The position numbers and the translations under genes were made by a program. This document shows positions 26,010 through 56,866 of a stretch of DNA of 64,000 nt, piece by piece. The notes under the pieces were generated by a model. That model was not told the origin of the DNA and did not search any database. It saw nothing but the letters and a program-made list of their open reading frames with translations. The first letter of the stretch is position 1; every line of letters starts with the position of its first letter. The DNA is from Sphingobium chlorophenolicum (lineage in GTDB: Bacteria > Pseudomonadota > Alphaproteobacteria > Sphingomonadales > Sphingomonadaceae): contig NZ_JFHR01000018.1 of assembly GCF_000722875.1 (NCBI RefSeq), forward strand, positions 1 through 64,000. The letters are read 5' to 3'.

Positions 26010-26924
26010 ATGGGAGCGGTCACGGCATCTTCGGTCTACTACATTAAGCTCGGCCGCAAAGGCGATTGGGAAACCGAGAGCATCCACGACGGTGTCCTCC
26101 GATTTGGCTATCGCGAGGCACCGCATGTCCTTTGCGCGGCGGGAGACTGGGCGGCCGTTCGTGAGGCAATGATGCGCATTCGGGGAGATGCCGGCGCTGC
26201 GACCCGCGACGTGAAGCAGATCCGCGCCTTCTACGAGAGCGACGAGACAGACATCTTCATCACTTTCGTGGGCGGTCTGCTCTATTGGTGCCGGCCGTCC
26301 GGCGAGATCGAAATCCTCGACGACAACAGCCACCGCCGATCGACGCTGGATGGCTGGCACAGCACCACGACAGGCGGCACGCTGCTGACCGCCGACCGCC
26401 TCTCCGGCCATCTTCTCAAGGTGCAGATGTTCAGGGGCACGATCTGCGACGTCGCCGCTGCCGACTATCTGCTGCGTCGGCTTAGCGACGAACTGTCGCC
26501 TGAAGTGGCCGCGGCAGAGGAGGCGGAGAGCGCGCTCATGGTGGCCGTCATTCCGCTGATGCGGCTCCTGACCTGGCAGGATTTTGAGCTGCTCGTCGAC
26601 CTGATCTTCTCGTCGAGCGGCTGGCGCCGGGTCAGCCAACTCGGGCGAACTCAAAAGACTATCGACCTTGAGCTCGTGCTGCCTAGCACCAGCGAGCGAG
26701 CGTTCGTCCAAGTAAAATCCAAGGCAAGCCGTGCTGCGCTGGATGACTATGCGGTGCGTCTGGAGGAAGCCGAGGCCTACGACCGAATGTTTTTCGTTTG
26801 GCACACAGGTGCTATCCCCGAGGATGAGGCCCCGGAGGGCGTGATCATGCTTGGGCCGCAGCGTCTGGCCAGAATGGTGGTCGATGCCGGCCTATCGTCA
26901 TGGCTGCGCGAAAAAGTCACATGA
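26010..26924 (+). CDS. Mrr-like restriction endonuclease with N-terminal reader-like domain
   Basis: 304 aa. C-terminal half carries an Mrr-type PD-(D/E)XK core: WQDFELLVDLIFSSSGW (E193), IDLELVLP (D219) and FVQVKSKAS (Q234, K236). The N-terminal ~150 residues (YYIKLGRKGDWETES, VLRFGYRE, FYESDETDIFITF) form a separate beta-rich domain of the kind that in related enzymes reads modified bases, although no such activity can be proved here. Last gene of the WYL cluster; ATG 26010 is 29 bases after the DUF4238 stop with GGAAGGA nearby. Probable effector that cuts invading or modified DNA. Confidence 0.75.
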   Translation: MGAVTASSVYYIKLGRKGDWETESIHDGVLRFGYREAPHVLCAAGDWAAVREAMMRIRGDAGAATRDVKQIRAFYESDETDIFITFVGGLLYWCRPSGEIEILDDNSHRRSTLDGWHSTTTGGTLLTADRLSGHLLKVQMFRGTICDVAAADYLLRRLSDELSPEVAAAEEAESALMVAVIPLMRLLTWQDFELLVDLIFSSSGWRRVSQLGRTQKTIDLELVLPSTSERAFVQVKSKASRAALDDYAVRLEEAEAYDRMFFVWHTGAIPEDEAPEGVIMLGPQRLARMVVDAGLSSWLREKVT

Positions 26925-30865: not shown

Positions 30866-31480
30866 TCAGAGGAGCGCCTGCTGCACGCTGAGAGGCGGAT
30901 AGACCTGGGTCGGGATGAGGCTGCCCTTGGGCAGGACGCGCAGGACCTCGCTCGCCGGCACGGTGGGATCGAGCCAGTCGGCCCATGCATCGCGCGGCAA
31001 CGGGATGATCTGTCGGCGGTGATAGGGCTTGATATCTTCTCCGGGCTCGGTGGTGAGCAGCGTGAACGCCTCTCCCTCGGGGGTCGAGCGCCAGATGCCG
31101 GCGATGCAGAACCAGTCGTGGTCGCGCATCGTGAAGAGCCATTTGGTCTTCCGCTTCTGCTTAGGGTCCTGGGGCTGGGTAAACTCGTAGAACCCGTCGG
31201 CGAGGATCAGGCAGCGATGCGACGTGAACTCCCGGCCCTCCGACTGGTAGTTGTAGACGGGTTTGCCGTTGTGGCCGGGCCAGCTCCATCGTCGATTGAC
31301 CAGTTCGCCGATGCTCCTGCCCTCGCCACTTCGGACGATCGGCGCGATATCGCTGATCTTGATGTCCTCGCGAGCTGCGACGTTTGGCGTGCCCTCAGGC
31401 ATTTTGATCTTGATCTTGAGGTCTTCGAAATCCTCGACGATCGAGGCGATGTCGACCTCCAGACGATAGTCATTGCACAT
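30866..31480 (-). CDS. yedK: SRAP / YedK-like protein (abasic-site DNA-protein crosslinker)
   Basis: 204 aa. SRAP hallmarks: Met-Cys start (Cys2 is the nucleophile exposed after Met removal), a conserved Trp-Pro stretch (WSWPGHNGKPVYN), RCLILADGFYEF with the catalytic Glu, and IKPYHRRQIIPLP with the His. The enzyme covalently caps abasic sites in single-stranded DNA. Divergent from a second SRAP-like gene 57 bases away; followed by DUF4238. Full length and probably active. Confidence 0.93.
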   Translation of the reverse strand: MCNDYRLEVDIASIVEDFEDLKIKIKMPEGTPNVAAREDIKISDIAPIVRSGEGRSIGELVNRRWSWPGHNGKPVYNYQSEGREFTSHRCLILADGFYEFTQPQDPKQKRKTKWLFTMRDHDWFCIAGIWRSTPEGEAFTLLTTEPGEDIKPYHRRQIIPLPRDAWADWLDPTVPASEVLRVLPKGSLIPTQVYPPLSVQQALL

Positions 31481-31537: not shown

Positions 31538-32056
31538 ATGTCCACGCCAACGCCGTTCGACTCCGAGGCGCCCCTCGAGAAGCTGCTACCCATCATCCGG
31601 CGAAATCCGGACGATATGCAAGAATTGGAAATGGTCGAGGCCCGGTGGGGCTCCAATCCCCGATTTAGCGACGGCACTTCGTTTCGGTTTGTGCGCTCCG
31701 AAGGCAAGACATTCCCGACGCAGCGCTGCCTCGTTCCCGCGTCCGAGTTCCATATGACGGTGGGCGACAAGCAGTACCGGGTGAAGCTCGACGACGGCAA
31801 TTTCTTCTATCTCGCCGCAGTGTGGGAGCCGGCGATGGCCGAGTGGCCCCTCTCGTTCCGGGTCATCACGGTGGCCGCCAATCCCGAGGTCAGCCGTTAT
31901 CAGGATCGGCACGGAGCGATCATCCTAAGGCGCCAGCGCATGCAGTGGCTCGACAATAGCGTCCCGGAGGCCGACCTTCTCGAGACGCCGCCGGCGCGAA
32001 CCTTCATCGTTGAGGAGATTACGAGCGGGCCGCGCCAGAAGGCGCTCGCGCTCTAG
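31538..32056 (+). CDS. Short SRAP-like protein lacking the catalytic cysteine
   Basis: 172 aa. Shares the SRAP core: RWGSNPRF, QRCLVPASEF (the Glu is kept), FYLAAVWEP and YQDRHGAIILRRQRMQWLD (the His is kept). The N-terminus begins MSTPTPFDSEAPLEKL instead of Met-Cys, so the Cys2 nucleophile is absent. Either it is an inactive or non-covalent DNA-binding relative, or it works on another nucleophile. Start ATG 31538 is the only one that precedes the core; ribosome site is weak. Divergent from the intact SRAP gene, sharing its promoter region. Stops overlap by 4 bases with the gene at 32053. Confidence 0.8.
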   Translation: MSTPTPFDSEAPLEKLLPIIRRNPDDMQELEMVEARWGSNPRFSDGTSFRFVRSEGKTFPTQRCLVPASEFHMTVGDKQYRVKLDDGNFFYLAAVWEPAMAEWPLSFRVITVAANPEVSRYQDRHGAIILRRQRMQWLDNSVPEADLLETPPARTFIVEEITSGPRQKALAL

Positions 32057-33675
32057 TCTGGAACGGTGATCGCCATACCGCCAAGCTGCGAGATCAACTC
32101 GGCGCGAGTGATCGGCACATCATAGCGCCATTCGAGCAGCCGAACGCCGTTACGCGCAAGCAAGCTGCGCTTCCTCTCGTCGCGGGCGCAGGTGAGCTCG
32201 AAGCCCTCCTGCCCCCCGAACAGCGCGATAGGCTCATAGTGCTGCTGGCCCTGATACTCGATGGCGAGACCCAGCTCGGGCACATGGATATCGATCGACT
32301 GCATGCCGAGAAACGGAGGACGCCATTGATGGACGGCGGATGGCCAGATCGTTCGGACGAGATCGAGCAACGCCACCTCGGACACCCAGCCGCGCCCGAT
32401 TTCAGGGATCGAGCGCTCGCGGCGGAAGGCTTCCTCGGCCGCGACCATGGCGCTCGCAAAGAACTCTGACGCGCCGGTGTCGGCGACGCCGATATTCCTT
32501 GAGAAGATCCGACCGCGCTGGCCGCTTGGATTTGAGAATTGGGCCATGTGGCGCCGGTAGGTGGCCCAATCCGCGGACGGTGGCAGCGGCGGTATCATCG
32601 ACGACCCGAAGTCCGGCCGCAGCCTGGTCATTTCTCCAAGAACGGGCGGTTCGAGCGCGAACTGGGCGTCCAGATGATCGAGAAAGGCTTCGAACTCCTC
32701 GAGCAGTCGCCCGGAGATCAGCGATTCCTGGCAGTGCTTGCGCGCCAGCACCCGGATGTCCTGCGCCTGAAGCGGGCTCCTAGTGAGGAACCGCAGGTAG
32801 ATGACCTCGTCGAACAGGGGTTCCCGGTCGCGGCCGGGGATCGCCTCGACCAGCGCGAGGGCCTCCTCAAGCTGGTCTGTCTCGGTGAGGTCCAGCACGC
32901 GCTGCCAATGTGGATCGGGGTCCCAAGGGCCGGCGTTCACATCGGGAAGGTCGGCCGGCAGTCCGATTCCATCCACGCCGCGCCATTGGTTGCCCATCAG
33001 CCGAGCCTGCAGGCCGTAGCTCCGTGACCGATTATTGTCCTCCCAGACACGCGCGATCGGCAGCGCGGGATCGAGCGGTGTGGCGGTCCAGGATTGGCCC
33101 TCAGGGATCCCTTCGGGCCGCATCACATAGCCGATATCGAAACCAGCCGCCGAATAGTCCCCCATGGCGAGATCGCCGATGGCTTCCACCAGCCTTTCGT
33201 AGAGCCGGACCTGGTCCTTGCGTACCCCGACCGAGACGAGAACGCGCCCGCGCGCCGAAGTTTGGCGGGAGACGGCGGGCGCGTAGGTGGCAAGCTCCAC
33301 GGCGCGCCGCCTGCGAATGCCGGAGCCTTCGAGGAAATGGATGCGGTGGGTGATGTCGTCGGCAAAGTCCGGATAGGACAGCGGCACCGGCTCGACCGTC
33401 TTGGCGGGCCGCTTCTTGGCCGGAGCCTCCGGGCCATATTCGGCGAGGAGCTCGCCGCACAGTTTCGAGAGCTTAGCAAAGTGCATTGCCGCCGGCGAGC
33501 CTGGCGGCCGCTTGCCGGAGAGCGTCGCATAGAGCTTCTGCCATTTGGCGAGGTCGCCCCGGTAGAGCGCGCGCCAGGTCCGGTTCTTCAACGTGTCTTC
33601 GTAAAGCTTCGCGTCCGCGCGAAACGCATCGAGGCCGGCGTCCCCCTTCTCTGGCGGCGGCGGCTTGAGGATCAC
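32053..33675 (-). CDS. Hypothetical protein with C-terminal Vsr-like PD-(D/E)XK nuclease domain
   Basis: 540 aa from GTG 33675 (VILKPPPPEKGD). The last ~95 residues read SIDIHVPELGLAIEYQGQQHY, then FGGQEGFELTCARDERKRSLL and LLEWRYD: the E-x-Q plus downstream R-D-x-x-K pattern of Vsr/DUF559-type endonucleases. The N-terminal ~130 residues are helical and basic (KKRPAKTVEP), the middle is unrecognised. The GTG is 7 bases after the TIR-like gene's stop, so translation is coupled; an extended reading upstream would overlap that gene in low-complexity Arg/Ser. Third and last gene of the cluster, convergent with the SRAP-like gene. Confidence 0.7.
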   Translation of the reverse strand: MILKPPPPEKGDAGLDAFRADAKLYEDTLKNRTWRALYRGDLAKWQKLYATLSGKRPPGSPAAMHFAKLSKLCGELLAEYGPEAPAKKRPAKTVEPVPLSYPDFADDITHRIHFLEGSGIRRRRAVELATYAPAVSRQTSARGRVLVSVGVRKDQVRLYERLVEAIGDLAMGDYSAAGFDIGYVMRPEGIPEGQSWTATPLDPALPIARVWEDNNRSRSYGLQARLMGNQWRGVDGIGLPADLPDVNAGPWDPDPHWQRVLDLTETDQLEEALALVEAIPGRDREPLFDEVIYLRFLTRSPLQAQDIRVLARKHCQESLISGRLLEEFEAFLDHLDAQFALEPPVLGEMTRLRPDFGSSMIPPLPPSADWATYRRHMAQFSNPSGQRGRIFSRNIGVADTGASEFFASAMVAAEEAFRRERSIPEIGRGWVSEVALLDLVRTIWPSAVHQWRPPFLGMQSIDIHVPELGLAIEYQGQQHYEPIALFGGQEGFELTCARDERKRSLLARNGVRLLEWRYDVPITRAELISQLGGMAITVPD

Positions 33676-33682
33676 GGACAGT

Positions 33683-35341
33683 TCAACCGAACGAGGGCGA
33701 GCCGTCGGCCCAGCCCGACGCCTGCCAAAGGACATTGAATTGATCGCGCAGCAGCGGCTGCATCGGTGCGGAAAGGTCGTCGACGCGCAGCTCCGGCAGA
33801 AGCAGCTCGGGCTTGCGGATCGTGCGGCCACCACCCCGCGCGCGGGTGAGTTCGACGTCCTCAACACCGCGAAAGGCGATCGCGACCAGCCCCGGGCCGG
33901 TGAGCCCAACCGCGGCGAGCACGCCGGCGAGGCGCTCGAGATGGGTGACGATCGCAGTCTCAAGCTCGCGGCCATCGACCACGATCTGCGGATCGTTATC
34001 GACCCGCGCACCGATCATCGTCTCGAATTCGATGGCACCAGGTCGCACGAAGCGCGTGCGCCACCGGGTCTCGGGATTGTTGTCCGTCGGGATCCGCGGA
34101 AGCCCATAGCTCCACCATTGGCGCTCGTCCGAGTCCGACTGGACTCGGACCTGCATGTCAGGCGGAAAGCGCAATGCGGCCGTCATGACGAGCTTCGGAT
34201 CCAGCGCAGGCCGATCCATGGCAACGAGCGGCACGATGCGCAGTGTCATGCTGGGCACGGCGACGATCTCTGGAAGTCCCCCGCGCATCCGGTCCATCGC
34301 CAGCTCGTTGACCTCGTTCCGAGCCGCTTCCCATCGGGGGTCGACCTGCGGGGCGGCGGGCGGCTGCGCCGCGACGCGGATCCGCGACCGCCCGACCTTC
34401 TCGAAGGCATCGATCGCATCGATCAGGGTCGTCGACCGTGTGTTCAGCTCCTTAACCGCGGCGAGGGTTGCCGGCTGCATACCGCGCCTGACATCCTCGT
34501 CCGTCTTCACCCAGGCCATGTTGTGGTTTTGGTCCATGACGTGGACCCGCTCGTAGACCAACTCCATGAGCGACGTGTTCGCCGCGCGGACAGCCACCGC
34601 AGCCTTCTGCAGCGTCTCGTCCTCGAAATCGAACGCGGCGCCTGCCCAGGTGGCGGCCATGTCGTCGAGCGGATCGAGCGCCTTGCGCGGGTAAGGAGTT
34701 CCGAAATTATGCTCGCGCAGGAACAGGCGCAGCGGCTCGGGAAATTGCGCGCGATAGCGCTGCAGCAACTCGACATCGTGCGGATGAGGCTCGACCGGCG
34801 GCTGCGCCATGCGGAGCACTTCATCGTCGAGGATCAGGCGAAGCGCGCTTTCCAAATCCTTCTGCAGACCGAGCCGGGCCGCCTGCCGATCCTCATCGCT
34901 CGCCTCGGCCGGACAGTGGAACAGGATCGGGCGCTTGAAGTGCGTGAGGTCGAACGGGAGGGGATGATCGTCCGGGTGCCCCATGGCCGTGTTCATCACG
35001 CCGACCATCCTGCCCCACCCGCGCGACTTCAGTGCCCAGCCATGCTCGAGCAGCACATTGGGATTGGGCGAACGCTGGCCCTTGGTCCGGGTCGCGACAT
35101 GGGTGAGGTCGGAGAGGAAGGCGACAGACCGATCGATCTTGCCGAAGATAGTGTCGGCGAGCGGGGGCATGCCGCTCACGTTAACGGTGTCACGATCTGC
35201 GTGAAGGTCGCGGTCTGCAGGATCGACATCGGCGTCTGCGTTGAGAGCTCTGATCGCACGATCGAGCGCCCACTGGATGAGGCCCCGGCCGATACGGTTA
35301 TCCGTGTCGCTCTGCCAGGAATAGAAGATGTAGTTCGGCAT
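33683..35341 (-). CDS. TIR-like nucleotide-binding domain protein
   Basis: 552 aa. N-terminal ~125 residues: IFYSWQSDTDNRIGRG at residues 5-20, LADTIFGKIDRSVAFLSDLT (61-80) and NPNVLLEHGWALKSRGW (93-109). The last has the N-V-x-x-E-x-G pattern of TIR-like and deoxyribosyltransferase-like NAD-cleaving domains, with Glu99 in the catalytic place. The rest is long, mainly helical then beta, and unrecognised, so it may be the sensor part. Starts with ATG 35341 preceded by AAGAG. 104 bases downstream of the nuclease-like gene. TIR proteins in bacteria usually kill the infected cell by depleting NAD. Confidence 0.7.
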   Translation of the reverse strand: MPNYIFYSWQSDTDNRIGRGLIQWALDRAIRALNADADVDPADRDLHADRDTVNVSGMPPLADTIFGKIDRSVAFLSDLTHVATRTKGQRSPNPNVLLEHGWALKSRGWGRMVGVMNTAMGHPDDHPLPFDLTHFKRPILFHCPAEASDEDRQAARLGLQKDLESALRLILDDEVLRMAQPPVEPHPHDVELLQRYRAQFPEPLRLFLREHNFGTPYPRKALDPLDDMAATWAGAAFDFEDETLQKAAVAVRAANTSLMELVYERVHVMDQNHNMAWVKTDEDVRRGMQPATLAAVKELNTRSTTLIDAIDAFEKVGRSRIRVAAQPPAAPQVDPRWEAARNEVNELAMDRMRGGLPEIVAVPSMTLRIVPLVAMDRPALDPKLVMTAALRFPPDMQVRVQSDSDERQWWSYGLPRIPTDNNPETRWRTRFVRPGAIEFETMIGARVDNDPQIVVDGRELETAIVTHLERLAGVLAAVGLTGPGLVAIAFRGVEDVELTRARGGGRTIRKPELLLPELRVDDLSAPMQPLLRDQFNVLWQASGWADGSPSFG

Positions 35342-35445
35342 TCAGCTCTTGATTCGCCCCGTTTTCGCTTGGCGATCTTGCTATCACGGCTCAGCCCTCC
35401 CGGCAGCAGAGAGAATGCGGTGCTCAGCCCTGGCGCAGGTGCCCG

Positions 35446-36534
35446 CTAGTTTTGCTCGTGAACTTCCTCGCCTTCACTTCCATGATGGCGCAGCATGTGC
35501 TGCAGCATCGACCAGCTCGAGCGATAGCGGTTGGTGGCTGTCGGATCGCTCGACACCACGACCAGCGCCGACAGGTCGGAGGGCAGCGCCTTGGAAAATA
35601 TCATGCGCAGCGCGTCGTCGGGCGAACGCGCGCGCGGCGCGGCCGCGGGGTTGGTTGCCGCGCGCAGCAGATAGGTCGCAAAGTCTATGCTATCCTCCAG
35701 CACATCGGTCGTCGTCGGGCTGCGCACGCTCTCGGCGGGCTTCACGAGAGGCGGCAGTGGCGTCTCCTGATCGCCGAGATTCTCGTAGAAGATATAGGCC
35801 GAGGCGCAGTCATTGGCCGCAAGCAGGTTCAGCTGGGGGCCACGCAGCTTGTTCGCCTGTGAGACGCTAGCGGTTGGCCGTGCGTAGCGCTTGGCCTGGA
35901 AGATCAGCGGAATAATACGGCGCTCCTCCACCTCTCGCCTTGCGCCGGGCTGGACCATCCGGCCGTCGAAGTCGAGGATCAGCCCGAAGTCGCCGCCGGT
36001 AACCTGCTCCCCGCCTCCGACCTGCAAATCGATGTCGCTGATCGCGAGCGTGGCACCGTTGCGCGCGACGGCCGGCGCGATGACTTCGGACCAGGCCTTG
36101 CCTTGTGTGGCCAACGCCTCGAGCAAATGCGCGGTGAGGCCCTGCTCCCCCTTTCTCGACGTGCAGCGTTCAAGCTGAAAGCCTGTCTCGGCCTCCAGCG
36201 CCGAGAAGAACAGCCACCAGTCGGCGAGATCCCGGTAGCAGGGCGGTTGGGTAAGGACGCGGTCGAGCAGCGCCGCCCAGGAGTTCAGCGCTGAAGGATC
36301 ATCCCTGTACATGTAGATCATCGACGCGGTGCCGGCGCCGGCAAGCCATTCGCTGGTGCCGCGCACGGCATCAGCCTTTCGCTTGTCGGCAGCCGGACAG
36401 GCATTGGTGAACTCGCCCATTCCCCGGACAGTTTCCTCGTCTGTCACCAGCGAATGCGCTCGGCTCATGGCCGCGAAGATCTCGTCGCCGTCCATCCCGA
36501 AGGCGCTGAGCATCGTCTCATCGTGTCCGGTCAT
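35446..36534 (-). CDS. PD-(D/E)XK-like protein, first gene of the TIR cluster
   Basis: 362 aa. Residues 166-216 show a nuclease-like pattern: ISDIDLQVGGGEQ, GGDFGLILDFDG (Asp182) and IIPLIFQAKRYA (Q213, K215), separated by a short loop, as in PD-(D/E)XK enzymes (D followed ~30 residues later by E/Q-x-K). Flanking regions are helical. It has no close family that I recognise. ATG 36534 with GGGG nine bases upstream. Same strand and close spacing with the TIR-like and Vsr-like genes suggests one transcript. Nuclease call is inference from motif spacing. Confidence 0.55.
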   Translation of the reverse strand: MTGHDETMLSAFGMDGDEIFAAMSRAHSLVTDEETVRGMGEFTNACPAADKRKADAVRGTSEWLAGAGTASMIYMYRDDPSALNSWAALLDRVLTQPPCYRDLADWWLFFSALEAETGFQLERCTSRKGEQGLTAHLLEALATQGKAWSEVIAPAVARNGATLAISDIDLQVGGGEQVTGGDFGLILDFDGRMVQPGARREVEERRIIPLIFQAKRYARPTASVSQANKLRGPQLNLLAANDCASAYIFYENLGDQETPLPPLVKPAESVRSPTTTDVLEDSIDFATYLLRAATNPAAAPRARSPDDALRMIFSKALPSDLSALVVVSSDPTATNRYRSSWSMLQHMLRHHGSEGEEVHEQN

Positions 36535-37476: not shown

Positions 37477-40400
37477 CTACAAATCGAGGCCCAGGCTCCG
37501 CTCGGGGAGCGGCGGCAGCAGGTCCGCCTTGTCGGGCTTGAGATCGGGTGGCGCCTTCAGATCGTCGCCCTTCGCCGGCGTGGCCGCCGGCAGCGGCCCA
37601 TCCGGAAGCGGGGGCAGATCAGCGAGGATCTCGTCCTGTCCGGCAAGGTTGATGCCGTCGATCGGGCCTGGGTCGAACTTGACCCGCTCGGACCCGGCCT
37701 TCTTGCCATCGATGTCGAGGCGGCCGAGCGTTTCGAGGGCGGAGGTCTTGTTGCCCGGGTTGGCGTCGAGCTGGCGCTCGAGCCGCTCCTTGTCGTCGAC
37801 GACCATGGTGAGATCGTCGCGGACGCGGGTCACGCCGACATTGAACAGGCGCTGGTTGGACAGGTTGCGCTCGTGGCTGTCCATGACCGTGATGGCTTTG
37901 TCGGTCGTGATGCCCTGCGCCATGTGCATGTTGAGCGCGTAGGCGAGGTCCAGGCGCGAGAGCATCGGATCGCCGAGCTCGAGGGTCAGGGTCTGCTTGG
38001 CCGCCGTCTCGACAGTGACGCCGCTCGCATCGATCGCCACCACCCGCGCGAGGGCGGCATTGTGAAGGTCGCGCGGCTTGTCGTTGGCGGTCCAGCGAAT
38101 GCGGTCGCCCTCGCGCACGTGGAGGTCCTTCTTCTCGGTCAGTTCGAGGCGATCGCGCTTCTCGGTGGGCGAGAGTTTCTGGAGATCGAACCGGACCTTG
38201 CGGCCGCCATGAGACAGCTCGACCTTGCCCGAGGGCAGCACTCTGGTGACGTCGTAGCGACCCTGCCCGAGCCCGACGTCCTGCGCGCCGCCGCGCCCGA
38301 CGTCGAGGGTTTGTCCGGGCCGATAGGAGGAGGCGTACCGCAGCTCCTCCCGGGTGAGGTTGACCCGCTCATAGACGGTCAGGTGGATGCCCTCCCCCCT
38401 GACGCTGCCCTCGGCCGCAAGCCCGTCCTGGATGCGCTGGTTGATGATCGCGCGGGACTCCCGACCCGAGGCGAACACGGCGGTGGCCGCGCGGTCCTCG
38501 CCGGAAAGGGCGAGCCACATTTCGGCGGCGGTTTCGGGCGGGCTCTCGCTCTCATGGACCTTGTCGCCCAGGACTTTCATCGCCTCGCCGGCCTTCCCGA
38601 CATTGGCGAGCGCAGCGACCGTGCGCAGCGTGTCGGTGCGCTGACGGATATTCTCGTCCATGCGCGCCATGGTCCCGCCGCCCGCCTGGATCATCGCGAA
38701 GGATTTGCCGGCATCAATCGAGGAGAGCTGCTGGCGATCGCCGACCAGGACGAGCTTGTCGACGGCGAGCGCGTCGGCGATCTGGTGGAGCCGCAGCATG
38801 TCATTGCTCGACACCATTGAGGTCTCGTCGACCACGAGCATGGCGCCGGCGAGCCTGGCACGCGCATCCTCGAACCGCGGGCTGTCGCGCTCGGTCACGA
38901 ACTTCCCGTTGGCGAGGACGAACGAGGCGATCGTCTGACTCTCGATCCCCGCCCCCTCGGCGAGGTCCGCGACCATCTTGTTCTGGAAGGCAAGGCCGAG
39001 AACCTTGCGCCCCTCCGCTTCCGCGACACGAGCGACCGCCTGGAGCATGGTCGACTTGCCGGCGCCGGCGATGCCCTGGATCGCAACCGTGCGATCGGCC
39101 GAGGAGAGAATGAGCGTCGCGGCGCCGAGCTGGCCGGCATTGAGCGACCGATCGGCCACCGCCTGCAGCCGTTCGGGCGCGTCGGCCGCTGAGACCATCG
39201 GCGTCGCTGTCCCGGCGCCCGCCTCGACCGCGGCAAGGATGTTCTGCTCGGTGCGCAAGGCGTCCTGCGTCGTCAGCATCTCGACGCCTTTGTCGCCGAT
39301 GCGTGCGACCCCCTGGATGAGCTGGCGGTTCTCGATGAGCTGGCCGATCCGGTGCTCGACCGTGTCGATCGTCACTCCTTTGAGGCCGAGATCCAGCGCG
39401 GTCTTCGAAAGCTGATGGTGGCCGAACGCCGCTTCGCGCTCGGAAAGGATCCGCACCGCCGAAGCGACCGCAAGCTGCGAGCGGGCGACGGCCGGCGATT
39501 TCGTGGCGCGGGCTAGGCCGCTGTCGACCAGCGGATCGGGCGAGCGCAGGAAGCCGCCGACAATCTCGCGCGCGCCGGCGATCACGTCGGTGACCGCCCG
39601 ATAGCCGCGTTCGAAGCGGGTATCTGCGAGACCCTGCCCGGCCCGTGCATCGGCCGAAGCGAGCAGGCTCTTGCCGTCGAAGCCGAGCGCGGCCGCCTTG
39701 TCGATCCAGCCCTGGACGAGAGTGCCACGGTCCTCGACATTGAGCTTGGGATCGCGGGTGGTGGTGGTGACCCCGTCACGCCCTTTTGGCGAGACGATGC
39801 CGAGCTCCGCCGCCTTCTCGAGGATGGCTTCGCGCCGCTGGCTGAAGGCGTCGATCACCGCCTTGGGAACGCCGGCGATCTCGAAGGTGCCGTGCTTGCC
39901 CTTCATTTCGACCTGGTAGCCGAGCTGCTCGAGCCCGCTGCGCAGGTAGGCGTGGTAGATGGCGCCGATCGTCGTGTTGTTGCTCCAGATCTTGTCGGCA
40001 TGGAGCGCCTGCCACTTACCGTCCGGCATGCGGGTCAGATTGGCGACGACGGCATGGATATGGGCCTGTGGATCGAGCGCCCGGCTCGTGTCGTGCTGGA
40101 AGAGTGCGTAGACGAGGTTGCCGGTGCGGACCGGCACCTTGCGGCCCTCAATATCCTTGCGCCCTTCGGCGAGGTTTTTCTCGACCCAGGCCATGGTCTT
40201 CTGGACCGCGCTCATGTTCGCCGCGAACACGCGCTTGTCACCGGCGATATAGGCCATGACCGACACCGACTTCGGCACCGAGAAGGTAAGGTCGAGCCCA
40301 TTGCGCCGGTTCTCGACCTGGGCGATGCCTTCCCCGCTCGGCAGCACGCCGCTCAGCGTTTTCTCGAAAGCGTCGCGGGCGACCTCGCCGGAAAGCCCCA

Positions 40401-40536
40401 GCGCTTCAGCCCCTGCCCCGCCCCATTCGCTGATCTCGGCCGAGCCGTCGGCCGTGTAGTAATTGTCCTTGAAGTCGTCCTTCGCGAAATAGTTCGCGGC
40501 GCCGGCTGCGGAACGGACCGAGGCGATCGAGTGCAT
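37477..40536 (-). CDS. traI: TraI, MobF-family conjugative relaxase-helicase
   Basis: 1019 aa. N-terminal TrwC-type relaxase: catalytic Tyr candidates in AANYFAKDD and NYYTADG, and the three-His metal motif in FQHDTSRALDPQAHIHAV. Then a helicase with Walker A GIAGAGKST, Walker B LVVDETSM and VLVGDRQQLSSI. C-terminal Pro-rich tail. Relaxase nicks oriT and pilots the strand, helicase unwinds it. Shorter than F TraI, like R388 TrwC. Three bases separate its start from the traD stop. The likely oriT is at 43323-43373. Confidence 0.95.
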   Translation of the reverse strand: MHSIASVRSAAGAANYFAKDDFKDNYYTADGSAEISEWGGAGAEALGLSGEVARDAFEKTLSGVLPSGEGIAQVENRRNGLDLTFSVPKSVSVMAYIAGDKRVFAANMSAVQKTMAWVEKNLAEGRKDIEGRKVPVRTGNLVYALFQHDTSRALDPQAHIHAVVANLTRMPDGKWQALHADKIWSNNTTIGAIYHAYLRSGLEQLGYQVEMKGKHGTFEIAGVPKAVIDAFSQRREAILEKAAELGIVSPKGRDGVTTTTRDPKLNVEDRGTLVQGWIDKAAALGFDGKSLLASADARAGQGLADTRFERGYRAVTDVIAGAREIVGGFLRSPDPLVDSGLARATKSPAVARSQLAVASAVRILSEREAAFGHHQLSKTALDLGLKGVTIDTVEHRIGQLIENRQLIQGVARIGDKGVEMLTTQDALRTEQNILAAVEAGAGTATPMVSAADAPERLQAVADRSLNAGQLGAATLILSSADRTVAIQGIAGAGKSTMLQAVARVAEAEGRKVLGLAFQNKMVADLAEGAGIESQTIASFVLANGKFVTERDSPRFEDARARLAGAMLVVDETSMVSSNDMLRLHQIADALAVDKLVLVGDRQQLSSIDAGKSFAMIQAGGGTMARMDENIRQRTDTLRTVAALANVGKAGEAMKVLGDKVHESESPPETAAEMWLALSGEDRAATAVFASGRESRAIINQRIQDGLAAEGSVRGEGIHLTVYERVNLTREELRYASSYRPGQTLDVGRGGAQDVGLGQGRYDVTRVLPSGKVELSHGGRKVRFDLQKLSPTEKRDRLELTEKKDLHVREGDRIRWTANDKPRDLHNAALARVVAIDASGVTVETAAKQTLTLELGDPMLSRLDLAYALNMHMAQGITTDKAITVMDSHERNLSNQRLFNVGVTRVRDDLTMVVDDKERLERQLDANPGNKTSALETLGRLDIDGKKAGSERVKFDPGPIDGINLAGQDEILADLPPLPDGPLPAATPAKGDDLKAPPDLKPDKADLLPPLPERSLGLDL

Positions 40537-40539
40537 GGG

Positions 40540-42843
40540 TCAGATGCCCATATCGAGATCGTCATTGTCGCGTCCGGCGGCGAATCCCTGGCGCAGCTCG
40601 ATGAGAGTCTGGTCCTCGACCTGCGGGCCGGGCGCGACGGCGCCGCGCGCATCGCGCCGCTCCCCCTCGGGCCGCGTGGCCGCCGCCTGTTCGCCCTCCC
40701 TGGGCGTGCCTGCAGCCCCCTTGTCGGCCGTGCGGTTCGCCGGCGTGGACTGCTCGTCGCGATCGTCGTTGCGCTGAGCGGTGCGCGCCGCGTCGGCGCT
40801 CTCTTCCTCGGGCGGTCCCTGCAGGATCCGGGCGGCCATGTCCTTTGCGAGATTGGTCGATTCGACGACCTCATCGATGATTTGCGCGGCGCCGTCGCGG
40901 CCGCCGGCCTCGCCCCCGTCTTCGGAGAAAGCATCCTCGCCGCGGCGCGAGCGCACCGGCTGCATCGAGGGCCGGGCCATGAAGCCACGGGCGACCTCGG
41001 GATAGTCCTTCCACTCGAGCAGAATGCGCGCGGCGGGAAAGCCATCGGGGAACTTCACGAACCCGTGCATCGAGGGCAGGTTCGTGATGTCGTCAGCGAT
41101 GACGAGGGGCTCGACCTGCTTGCGCGGGGTCAGGGTCGAGGCGTCACGATTGTTGTTGTAGCCATAACTATAGGCCTCATCCATCTGCCGCACTTCGCGG
41201 TTGCCGATATATTGCGAGCATTCCTCGGCGGTCTTGAGTTCGCTGGTCGCGAGGATGAGCTTGGTGCGCGCGAGTGAGGCGAGATTGCGGGCGCCCTCCT
41301 CGCCATAGACCTCGACCAGTTTCTGGAAGCTGTGGAGCCCCAGGATCATCGCGCCGCCGAAGTTGCGGGCGGTCTGAAGTCCCTTCTCGATCGCGGGCAG
41401 GCGGTGGAGCGCACCGACCTCGTCGAACATGAACCAGGTCCGCAAGCTGCGGGTCCGGGGCAGCGTCATCAGACTGGTGATTGCGAGATTCATCCAGAGC
41501 GTGAGCAGCGGCCTGTTCATCTCCAGGTCGTCGTAATCGGAGGTGACGAACAGGATCGATCCAGGCGCGCGCTCGGTGGTCATCCAGCGCCGGATCGAGA
41601 ACTGTTCGCCCTCGTCCGGGAGGAAGCGCAGGACCTGCGCATTGGTGTTGAAGACGGCGCGGATGGACTCGGCCATGCGGGCGGCTTCCGGCGCGGTCAG
41701 CGGGTCGGCGATGGTGTTGGCGAGGAAGCGGTGAACGCGCTTCAGGTCCGCCGTCATCAGGTTCTCGGAGAGGGCGAGATTGCTCGTCTGGCCGCGCTCC
41801 TGGAGGCGCACGCACATCTCGATGAAGAGGGTCCGCGCCGCGAGCGCCCAGAAGGGTTCGGACGAACCACCATCGGACGGGATCAGCGCCGCGGCGGCGG
41901 ACGTGAAATGGCTGTAGGTCGAGCAGTCGTTGAAGATCGACCAGGCCGGGCAGCGCTGATCCATGGGGTTGAGGATCGTGTCTCGGGCCGGATCGTAGAA
42001 GGCTTCAACATAGGCGCCGGTAAGGTCGAAGATAACGGCATTGTCCTGCCGTTGACGCATCTGGGTGACCAGGCTTCTGAGTTCCGTCGTCTTGCCCGCG
42101 CCGGTCGTGCCGATGAGCATGGTGTGGGACTGTTCGAGGCGATGCGGATAGGGCACGCCGGCGAGCGTGTAGGGATGATGGATCCCGCCCGCCTTTCGCT
42201 CGGAAAAGGGCAGGCGGAGTACGGCGGCCGGGCTCAGCCGGGGGAAAAACTGGTGTGCATCTTCTTCGAACTTGGCGGCATTGTGCTGCGCGATTTCGGA
42301 GACGAGGACGGCGCGAACGACGAGCATGGCGCCGCGCTCATGGCGTTCCTGAAGGATCGATTTGCCGCGCCGGCGGGAGATGTCGATGAACCAGATCGCG
42401 AGCGGCGTGACGACGAAGATCGAGACCAGGAGCGAGCCGATCAGTGCGTGGACGGTCGTGGCCCAGGCCTTCTGGACGGCGGGGATATAGGGCACCGCCG
42501 GCATGATGGTTTTGTAGACCTCGCCGCTCGGCAGCGTGACGTTGACGCGCTTGTTCGGGTTGAGGTCGACCCAGTTCCAGAGGCCCGCATAGACCTTCAT
42601 GCAGACGAGCTGGAAACCGTGCTCGTCGAGGCGGATCGAGAGGATGATGAACCAGGCCAGGAGGAAGGCGAAGAACCACGCCAGGATCGGCAGCCTGGCG
42701 CCCGAGAACCACATCAGCATCTCATGGGTGAGAAGCTGGGAGCCGCGCGTGAAATTGCCCGAGTTGCGCTGCACGCGGCCGCGCGCGGAGTGGTGGGTCA
42801 GCGGGATGTTCTGACCGTTCGAGCGGATGTCCTTACGCGCCAT
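40540..42843 (-). CDS. traD: TraD, type IV coupling protein
   Basis: 767 aa from ATG 42843. Two N-terminal membrane helices (ILAWFFAFLLAWFIILSI and LIGSLLVSIFVVTPLAIWFI), then a VirD4/TraD ATPase: Walker A LIGTTGAGKTTEL, Walker B TWFMFDEVGAL. Acidic, Glu/Arg-rich C-terminus after about residue 600, as in TraD proteins that contact the relaxosome. ATG 42843 overlaps the end of the RHH gene by 11 bases; an in-frame codon 36 bases upstream is less likely. Delivers the TraI-DNA complex to the T4SS. Confidence 0.95.
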   Translation of the reverse strand: MARKDIRSNGQNIPLTHHSARGRVQRNSGNFTRGSQLLTHEMLMWFSGARLPILAWFFAFLLAWFIILSIRLDEHGFQLVCMKVYAGLWNWVDLNPNKRVNVTLPSGEVYKTIMPAVPYIPAVQKAWATTVHALIGSLLVSIFVVTPLAIWFIDISRRRGKSILQERHERGAMLVVRAVLVSEIAQHNAAKFEEDAHQFFPRLSPAAVLRLPFSERKAGGIHHPYTLAGVPYPHRLEQSHTMLIGTTGAGKTTELRSLVTQMRQRQDNAVIFDLTGAYVEAFYDPARDTILNPMDQRCPAWSIFNDCSTYSHFTSAAAALIPSDGGSSEPFWALAARTLFIEMCVRLQERGQTSNLALSENLMTADLKRVHRFLANTIADPLTAPEAARMAESIRAVFNTNAQVLRFLPDEGEQFSIRRWMTTERAPGSILFVTSDYDDLEMNRPLLTLWMNLAITSLMTLPRTRSLRTWFMFDEVGALHRLPAIEKGLQTARNFGGAMILGLHSFQKLVEVYGEEGARNLASLARTKLILATSELKTAEECSQYIGNREVRQMDEAYSYGYNNNRDASTLTPRKQVEPLVIADDITNLPSMHGFVKFPDGFPAARILLEWKDYPEVARGFMARPSMQPVRSRRGEDAFSEDGGEAGGRDGAAQIIDEVVESTNLAKDMAARILQGPPEEESADAARTAQRNDDRDEQSTPANRTADKGAAGTPREGEQAAATRPEGERRDARGAVAPGPQVEDQTLIELRQGFAAGRDNDDLDMGI

Positions 42844-43123
42844 GATATTGGACCAGGCGCTTGTCGGTTTCGGCGACAAGCCGATCGCGCAGTTCGGGAT
42901 ATTGCTCGCGGATGATGACGTCCAAGGCGAGCTGCTGGAACTCGCTGATGCGGGCCAGCCGGCGCTGGCTGGCGGTCAGGACGTCGGAGGAGGAGAGGAA
43001 GACATCGAGGGCCGACCGGATGATGTCGGCGACCGTCAGCTTCTGCTCGGCGGCGATCGCGCTGAGGCGGTCCCACTGGGAGCGCTCCAGGCGGATATTG
43101 TAGTGCCTGTAACTGGTAGCCAA
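42833..43123 (-). CDS. Ribbon-helix-helix relaxosome accessory protein (TTG start)
   Basis: 96 aa. MATSYRHYNIRLERSQWDRLSAIA then LTVADIIRSALDVFLSS is a ribbon-helix-helix, followed by a helical tail. Start TTG 43123 is favoured because AGGAGG lies six bases upstream; the alternative TTG 43129 touches the ribosome site. Its place before traD and next to oriT matches TraY/TrwA-type accessory proteins that bind oriT and repress the tra promoter. Divergent from the oriT-side region. Confidence 0.8.
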   Translation of the reverse strand: MATSYRHYNIRLERSQWDRLSAIAAEQKLTVADIIRSALDVFLSSSDVLTASQRRLARISEFQQLALDVIIREQYPELRDRLVAETDKRLVQYHGA

Positions 43124-55744: not shown

Positions 55745-56866
55745 TCACAGGAGGTCTGAAAATCGCTCCATTATGGATGAAGCTGTCGGATAGAGGTCCG
55801 CCAGGCCGTGTCGGGCGAGGATCGGTCGCCGCGCCGTTGCGATGTCCTCGGCCTCGGAGCGGGTCGGCACGCGTGGAGGCCATCCTTTGACGTAGCGCAG
55901 CGTTGGCGGCATCATCGCTTCGAGCCTCCGGCGCTCAAGCTGGTCGGCCTTAGCGCGGGCGATATCAGCCCGCAGCGCTAATCCCAGAAGGTGGGGCGCG
56001 ACATCCGCCAGCCACCGTGCCGGTTGAAACGGGAACGTCGAACGAGCCTCGATGTCGACGAGCTCGCGATAGACCTCCGCGTTCGCCGGCGCCGATGCTG
56101 ACGCAGAGAGATCGTGCATCGAGGCAAAGATGCAGTACCGGCACGAAAGGCGCGTGGCCTGGTAGGCCGTATAGGCCTCATGGAGGAGCAGACCGAGGAT
56201 CTGATGGGCGCGAAAGACATCGCCACTCGTCCAGTCTGCGATGGGGTTCCAGACCATCATCACCGTCCCGTGTCGGTTTCCGGCCTTGGCGTGACGATGG
56301 TCTGCCTTGGAGATCGGTATCGCGGCGCGGTTGTGACTTTCGTCGCGTCGCAGGCCCAGCACGGACACGATCGTCTGTCCGCGCAGACGCTGCGCGATGG
56401 CGGGACCGATGACGGCCGATTTCATTTCGGACTGGCAAAACCGGAGCGAAGCGGACGACCAGGGACCGATGAGATTGTAGGTCTCCAGCGCCTCGTAGCG
56501 GCGCTTGCCGCTTTCGAAGCGCTGTAGCCAACGGTCCACCAGGTCGCCGGCTGACCGTCGGACAACTGTAAGCGGAACGCCTGCCTCTGCTGCGATGCGG
56601 TCGACGGTGGCCGAAGTGGTCGCCCACTCTGCCCGCCCAAGGTCGGCATGAACCGCCATTCTGCGATCACGCGAATGGCCAAGCCAGTCGAGGAAGAGAT
56701 TCACCGCTGACATTGCTGCGGTGGAATCCTTGCCTCCGGAGAGGTTGAAGACGACCCAGGCATCATTGACGATGGCTTCGACGATGTCGGGCGTGAGCGC
56801 GATGCCTGGCAACTCGGGCATAACGGAGTGCGCCCCTGCCGCGATAAGACGAGCGAGGTAGGTCAT
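55745..56866 (-). CDS. PP-loop ATPase, PAPS-reductase-like (copy B)
   Basis: 373 aa. Canonical PP-loop NLSGGKDSTAAMS at 41-53, then ETYNLIGPWSSASLRFCQSEMK, GLRRDES and LSCRYCIFASMHDLS with a Cys pair. Same family as DndC and phage-encoded PAPS-reductase-like proteins. 21 bases follow the stop of the upstream gene; its ribosome site is weak, so coupling is likely. With copy A it makes an unusual tandem of two diverged enzymes. Confidence 0.87.
   Translation of the reverse strand: MTYLARLIAAGAHSVMPELPGIALTPDIVEAIVNDAWVVFNLSGGKDSTAAMSAVNLFLDWLGHSRDRRMAVHADLGRAEWATTSATVDRIAAEAGVPLTVVRRSAGDLVDRWLQRFESGKRRYEALETYNLIGPWSSASLRFCQSEMKSAVIGPAIAQRLRGQTIVSVLGLRRDESHNRAAIPISKADHRHAKAGNRHGTVMMVWNPIADWTSGDVFRAHQILGLLLHEAYTAYQATRLSCRYCIFASMHDLSASASAPANAEVYRELVDIEARSTFPFQPARWLADVAPHLLGLALRADIARAKADQLERRRLEAMMPPTLRYVKGWPPRVPTRSEAEDIATARRPILARHGLADLYPTASSIMERFSDLL

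What the first reader, a model, noticed from the sequence alone, without database searches (positions are those of the whole stretch)
32053..36534. Three-gene cluster of TIR-like protein with two nuclease-like proteins: candidate undescribed defence system
Seen: a PD-(D/E)XK-like gene (35446-36534), a TIR-like gene (33683-35341, NPNVLLEHGW with Glu99) and a gene with a C-terminal Vsr-like nuclease (32053-33675) lie on one strand, the last two 7 bases apart. Known: TIR domains in bacteria often deplete NAD during phage infection and are paired with sensors. Inference: the three proteins form one module in which nuclease-like parts recognise or cut foreign DNA and the TIR-like part kills the cell. 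I do not recognise this combination as a named system.
Basis: partly seen in the sequence, partly recalled or inferred. Interest (0 to 1): 0.8.

Follow-up and report, generated by a model that had tools for sequence, protein, structure and literature searches.

The report
Plasmid TIR–nuclease immunity with swapped sensors
Two neighbouring genes, side by side in all 16 close copies examined, most of them on plasmids or beside plasmid-transfer genes in sphingomonad bacteria, encode a predicted NAD-destroying TIR enzyme, whose middle segment (a likely sensor) differs like an exchanged cassette between otherwise near-identical copies, and a predicted DNA-cutting enzyme; together they would likely defend the cell against viruses or rival plasmids.

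The parts
33683..35341 (-). Gene B, 552 aa: TIR-like head + M + S
34787..35341 (-). B residues 1-185, TIR-like head of CAP12/Pycsar type (YSWQSD...NPNVLLEHG, Glu99)
   Evidence: 19 of 25 aligned members match PF10137 weakly at E<=1 (best 0.026; window B itself does not); a relative of this head on a viral contig (L088) passes PF10137's cut-off (26.5 against 24.7 bits) and matches a PADLOC TIR-effector model at 1.8e-9
34376..34726 (-). B residues 206-322, M cassette (likely sensor, inferred)
   Evidence: 97/36/99% identity in head/M/S between S. morindae P0003 and P0015; stand-alone with TM-like segments in L077-L079
33686..34306 (-). B residues 346-552, S domain (likely adaptor or sensor, inferred)
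   Evidence: Behind TIR (L017, L063), HNH_2 (L101), SLFN_AlbA_2 (L103, L104; weaker S match) and DUF4062-like (L097, sub-threshold) heads
32053..33675 (-). Gene C, 540 aa, companion protein with C-terminal Vsr-fold nuclease domain
32056..32397 (-). C residues 427-540, Vsr-like nuclease domain (E433, D462, E473, H479, D499 kept in 120 of 120 listed homologues)
33676..33682 (-). 7-bp B-C junction; 7, 11 or 13 bp in 16 of 16 loci
35446..36534 (-). Gene A, 362 aa, PD-(D/E)XK-type motif; facultative neighbour, not core
31538..32056 (+). SRAP-like gene converging on C (4-bp overlap of the gene ends), border of the cargo slot
   Evidence: Sequence; its S. morindae counterpart matches SRAP at 9.9e-14; the window copy itself was not scanned
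37477..40536 (-). MobF relaxase TraI, near the other border of the cargo slot (a 66-aa and a 223-aa gene follow it in S. morindae)

Best explanation
Genes B and C form a conserved two-gene unit, mostly on plasmids or beside plasmid-transfer genes in sphingomonads, that is likely an anti-phage or anti-plasmid defence: B is predicted to be a TIR sensor-effector that would destroy NAD+ when its likely exchangeable M segment and its S domain sense an intruder, and C a predicted Vsr-like nuclease that would cut the intruder's DNA. Shown by sequence: the B-C linkage, the conserved candidate catalytic residues, purifying selection, the M differences between B proteins that are otherwise near-identical, and the occurrence of S and M behind other heads. 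Predicted: the TIR-like and Vsr-like folds. Inferred and untested: NAD+ hydrolysis, DNA cleavage, what M or S binds, death or arrest of the cell, and contact between B and C.
Confidence: 0.5

Rival explanations
1. C is the sensor: it recognises or nicks foreign or damaged DNA, and the C-DNA complex switches on the NADase of B, in the manner of SPARTA, where an Argonaute partner senses DNA for a TIR protein.
For: Tight B-C linkage with 7-13 bp gaps in 16 of 16 loci; C has about 425 residues before its nuclease domain that could recognise DNA; more distant B proteins sit next to other nuclease-like genes.
Against: M changes while C stays about 91% identical (co-location inferred from equal contig count and length), so specificity appears to lie in B; B without C exists (6 of 6 distant loci).
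Confidence: 0.22
2. A plasmid-keeping or plasmid-competition device (addiction or exclusion of incoming plasmids) rather than phage defence.
For: B-C lies beside traI/traD in a slot of MOBF plasmids; the same slot stands without B-C in S. psychrotolerans.
Against: L007 shows no TraI or TraD in the stretch held and L082 lies on a 4-megabase contig; relatives of the TIR head occur in contigs classed as viral and in megabase contigs, which fits general defence; no gene for an antitoxin lies between B and C.
Confidence: 0.15
3. Thoeris-like relay: B makes a cyclic ADP-ribose signal that switches on the nuclease C.
For: TIR plus a separate effector gene is the Thoeris layout (PMC11312562, abstract and outline only).
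Against: No nucleotide-binding domain was recognised in C by the searches made (most of its first 425 residues are unassigned); the nearest Pfam model for the head is the CAP12/Pycsar effector TIR, whose known members are NADase effectors (recalled).
Confidence: 0.08
4. All three genes A, B and C are one obligate system.
For: A-B-C with 91-92% identity in S. morindae p1; equal longest-contig lengths for P0012/P0124/P0203 (6691) and P0018/P0123 (13988).
Against: A absent in 14 of 16 B-C loci; A homologues stand without B or C on two Agrobacterium plasmids; in the order sample A matches in 2 of 396 genomes, own included and the other weak, where near-full-length B is in 6.
Confidence: 0.06

Closest known systems
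Swarozyc (DUF4062 TIR-like NADase, PMC13174449)
   Same: TIR-like head with a conserved Glu plus a C-terminal auxiliary part; one S-domain relative (L097) has a DUF4062-like head
   Different: B's head is nearest the CAP12/Pycsar model, not DUF4062; B has M and S parts and a nuclease-like gene next door; the DUF4062 match in L097 is below Pfam's cut-off
CAP12 / Pycsar effector TIR (PF10137)
   Same: Sequence relation of the head
   Different: No CD-NTase or cyclase was recognised among the neighbouring genes scanned
SPARTA (TIR-APAZ plus short Argonaute)
   Different: Partner has a Vsr-fold nuclease domain; no Argonaute was recognised
Vsr and the I-Bth0305I homing endonuclease catalytic domain
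   Different: About 425 further residues without assigned fold; the linked gene is TIR-like
MORC/GHKL restriction neighbourhoods with VSR-superfamily and TIR genes (PMC2292703, passages read)
   Same: Earlier report of VSR-superfamily nucleases and of TIR domains in related restriction neighbourhoods
   Different: Those are built on GHKL ATPases with methylases and helicases; none was recognised beside B-C

Membership tests
TIR-domain NADase (CAP12/PCTIR, PF10137) | Sequence match to the family model | tested here: inconclusive
   Window B: none at E<=1; 19 of 25 aligned members weak (best 0.026); a relative of the head passes the cut-off
TIR-domain NADase (CAP12/PCTIR, PF10137) | Conserved catalytic Glu | tested here: met
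   Glu99 in 116 of 120 listed homologues, 4 gaps
TIR-domain NADase (CAP12/PCTIR, PF10137) | TIR fold | tested here: inconclusive
TIR-domain NADase (CAP12/PCTIR, PF10137) | NAD+ hydrolysis | not testable with these tools
   needs enzyme assay
Vsr-like nuclease (gene C) | Vsr / PD-(D/E)XK fold | tested here: met
Vsr-like nuclease (gene C) | Conserved acidic and His candidate catalytic residues | tested here: met
   E433, D462, E473, H479, D499 in 120 of 120 listed homologues
Vsr-like nuclease (gene C) | DNA cleavage | not testable with these tools
   needs enzyme assay
PD-(D/E)XK (gene A) | D...(E/Q)xK motif | tested here: met
   E176, D182, Q213, K215 in 68 of 69 homologues, 1 gap
PD-(D/E)XK (gene A) | Fold | not tested
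Swarozyc | DUF4062 head | tested here: not met
   No DUF4062 match at E<=1 in B or the other 24 aligned members
SPARTA | Short Argonaute plus APAZ | tested here: inconclusive
   None recognised in A, B, C by PADLOC, NCBIfam or Pfam, but C's first 425 residues are unassigned; its C-terminal domain is Vsr-fold
Thoeris | ThsA-type SIR2/SLOG effector next to TIR | tested here: not met
   None recognised in A-C nor in 10 other window proteins scanned with PADLOC; SRAP and Tra neighbours identified as such
CBASS / Pycsar | CD-NTase or cyclase gene next to the TIR gene | tested here: not met
   None recognised in the same scans
Three-gene A-B-C system | Co-conservation of A with B-C | tested here: not met
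   A in 2 of 16 B-C loci

The most novel reading that the evidence does not exclude
B-C is the type member of a cassette-built immune family: a constant TIR engine, trigger-recognition cassettes (M) traded by recombination much like specificity subunits of restriction enzymes, and an adaptor domain (S) that bacteria have bolted onto four kinds of killing head (TIR, DUF4062-like, HNH, Schlafen-AlbA_2), each docked to whichever nuclease or abortive-infection gene is at hand. The M type decides which phage or plasmid sets it off.
Probability: 0.35. Interest if true: 0.8.

Novelty: new variant of a known kind. Interest (0 to 1): 0.6.

Why it matters
If right, it gives a natural experiment for how TIR immune proteins choose their trigger: B proteins nearly identical in head and S but with different M can be compared, and their M parts exchanged, against the same phages. 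S and M have no Pfam match and connect TIR, HNH, Schlafen-type and membrane-type proteins, so they could be used to find further defence genes. It also shows conjugative plasmids of sphingomonads carrying such units in a cargo slot between transfer and SRAP genes.

Tried and rejected
Three-gene module: rejected on A's absence in 14 of 16 loci. tRNA and Rfam scans: nothing. PDB sequence searches for A, B, C and one TIR relative: no meaningful match. Foldseek PDB search: no match at E<=0.001 for the B model or the C model (Vsr at rank 16); VIA-align did not single out TIR for B and put Vsr second for C, under a T. gondii mitoribosome chain aligned to the same part of C. Phage records: no B match. 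Viral contigs: 7 TIR-head relatives, 2 C, 1 A, none a B-C pair in the stretches held. Class-wide samples: full-length B only in the own genome, 1 of 385, partial matches in 5 more; S in 4 of 385, own included, the other three weak. Literature searches on seven term sets, one open-access library only: 0 papers with Vsr + TIR domain + phage defense; 3 with very short patch repair + TIR domain, passages of 2 of the 3 read, neither describing this pair. PMC12799240 (nuclease-protease pairs) was seen only in search listings.

Labels by eye, from no call: GIY-YIG for P0316 (L010); PD-(D/E)XK-like for the gene after B in L008 and L011 and for P0311; portal/terminase-like and P2-like for neighbours in L088/L089. 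DUF4062 in L097 is a sub-threshold match (E 0.012, 16.2 against 24.7 bits). HNH_2 in L101 passes its cut-off only with a start upstream of the annotated one (22.2 against 21 bits; 20.8 with the annotated start). The neighbours of B in L016 were not scanned against any family library.

Rows left out of the 16-locus count: L013 (B cut to 64 matched residues), L034 (B in pieces), L017 and L063 (TIR-S without M). Merged as one by equal contig length: L083 with L002, L061 with L008. L015 and L084 are identical over B, so they may be one organism counted twice (one of the 9 clusters); both were scored from the open frame that begins after their early stop. L003 is titled a Microbacterium MAG and is probably mis-binned. 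Left out of the S-head list: L105 (45 matched columns only) and L034 (fragment).

Full report
OBSERVATION. A (36534-35446, 362 aa), B (35341-33683, 552 aa) and C (33675-32053, 540 aa, GTG start) read in one direction; A and B are 104 bp apart, B and C 7 bp. None has a Pfam, NCBIfam or PADLOC match of note. Their homologues number 69, 216 and 184 at E<=1e-3 (120 listed for B and for C), and all three evolve under purifying selection (dN/dS 0.12 for A against one locus; 0.09-0.11 for B and 0.09-0.10 for C against six loci).

WHERE IT LIES. The window holds MobF relaxase and TraD genes (37477-42879). Five plasmids with B-C were looked at: S. morindae p1, N. capsulatum, R. dicambivorans and S. amiense are typed conjugative with MOBF/MPF_F, Sphingobium CFD-2 mobilizable with MOBF and MOBP. 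B-C sits in a cargo slot between traI (plus small genes) and, in four of these five, a pair of SRAP genes. In S. psychrotolerans the slot is there without B or C. In R. dicambivorans a Tn7-like gene set stands upstream of B in the slot. L007 (record title Glycocaulis profundi) shows no TraI or TraD in the stretch held.

WHICH GENES BELONG TOGETHER. Among 16 loci with B of the window's clade (window included), C follows B by 7, 11 or 13 bp in 16 of 16; these are 9 clusters at 95% DNA identity of B. A is found in 2 of 16. In one sample of the order (396 genomes, own included) near-full-length B is in 6 and near-full-length C in 6; five genomes hold both, side by side; G382 has B without C and G054 a more distant C without B. 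One of the five (G314) has the early-stop B described below. A matches in 2 of 396, the one outside the own genome weak. Equal longest-contig lengths in the protein lists suggest A-B-C on a 6691-base contig and A-B on a 13988-base contig. So B-C is the unit and A is optional. Six more distant B loci (45-56% identity; L008-L012, L016) have no C.

M AND S. Splitting the B profile into head, M and S and scoring all loci held shows that the parts travel apart. S follows a TIR head directly in L017 and L063. It also follows an HNH_2 head in L101 (22.2 bits against a cut-off of 21 with an upstream start; 20.8 with the annotated start), a DUF4062-like head in L097 (sub-threshold) and SLFN_AlbA_2 heads in L103 and L104 (4.5e-15 and 1.2e-14). 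The S match of L103 and L104 is itself modest (9e-8 and 5e-6; with the profile built from B alone L103 is at 0.0012 and L104 is not listed). M stands alone behind hydrophobic, TM-like segments in three loci (two segments in L077 and L079, one in L078). In L078 it follows a type ISP restriction gene.

CASSETTE PATTERN. S. morindae B (P0003) and P0015 are 97% identical in the head, 36% in residues 206-322 and 99% in S. Window B and P0011 are 94/37/89%. P0030 has the same second M type (69-70% to those of P0011 and P0015). The M parts of P0011 and P0015 are only 70% alike although their heads are 94% and their S 96% alike. Twenty-residue windows (window B or P0003 against P0011) show sharp borders near residues 201 and 321. 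P0011 is listed on 5 contigs and P0015 and P0030 on one each, so an assembly error is unlikely. C homologue P0193, with the same contig count and longest contig as P0011, is 91% identical to window C. The simplest reading is that M is a specificity part exchanged while the head, S and C stay. This is inference; no binding partner is known.

PARTNERS OF B ELSEWHERE. L012 has HNH_5 9 bp upstream of B and AbiU2 downstream; L009 has Abi_C 2 bp upstream and a homologue of the L012 downstream gene; L010 has a GIY-YIG-like gene (by eye) 3 bp upstream; L008 and L011 share a gene after B that looks PD-(D/E)XK-like by eye; the neighbours in L016 were not scanned. So 5 of the 6 distant B loci have a nuclease-like or abortive-infection gene next to B, three of them judged by eye. 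The TIR-S protein of L017 is followed by SduA_C. A TIR-head relative in L065 overlaps a gene matching the PADLOC type II methyl-directed nuclease model at 3.5e-56. Other TIR-head relatives had no such neighbour in view (for example L064, L068, L071). No background rate was computed.

MECHANISM. Best reading (0.5): B senses an intruder through M and S, its TIR heads assemble and hydrolyse NAD+, and C cuts intruder DNA. Swarozyc is the precedent for a TIR-like head plus auxiliary part triggered by a phage portal (PMC13174449; abstract, first part of Results and passages read). Rivals are C as the DNA sensor (0.22), plasmid competition (0.15), a Thoeris-like relay (0.08) and an obligate A-B-C system (0.06). 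Against the best reading: B lacks C in the distant clade and C lacks B elsewhere; B is broken early in N. capsulatum with C intact; nothing has been assayed.

NOVELTY. TIR effectors paired with sensors or nucleases are a known kind. The pairing with a Vsr-fold partner, the M pattern and the S domain shared between effector heads were not found in PADLOC or in the literature searches made (calls listed under Tried and rejected; one open-access library). New variant of a known kind, interest 0.6.

Noticed in passing
   Followed up: partly
L106:2103-6739: TnsA, Mu-type transposase, TniB and TniQ genes (Tn7-like set) between traI and B in R. dicambivorans p2.
   Followed up: no
L097:3718-7446: Caulobacter henricii pCB4: a TIR_2 gene followed without gap by a DUF4062-like + S protein and then a gene with two TM-like segments, a possible three-gene unit.
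   Followed up: partly
L098:5986-9923: S. paucimobilis plasmid: TIR-head relative, then recombinase, serine protease and PD-(D/E)XK nuclease genes; resembles the nuclease-protease pairs of PMC12799240 (search listing only).
   Followed up: no
L088:8001-9242, L089:4232-5473: Two viral contigs carry the same 413-aa TIR-head protein beside genes that look like portal and terminase (the neighbour labels are by eye, the host is not given).
   Followed up: partly
window 26010-26924 (+): Protein with an Mrr_cat match (22.1 bits against 21) and a weak PADLOC PDC-S02 match.
   Followed up: no
window 55745-56866 (-): DndC-like match (1.1e-9, PADLOC).
   Followed up: no
window 30866-31480 (-) and 31538-32056 (+): Two divergent SRAP-family genes at the border of the cargo slot; the second ends in a 4-bp overlap with the end of C.
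   Followed up: partly
L003: Record titled Microbacterium MAG carries a typical sphingomonad plasmid stretch; probably mis-binned.
   Followed up: no
L078:830-6399: M protein with a TM-like segment directly follows a type ISP restriction gene, with a helicase gene further on.
   Followed up: partly
L030:5149-8948: An A homologue on an Agrobacterium larrymoorei plasmid lies in two pieces with IS21 genes between them.
   Followed up: no
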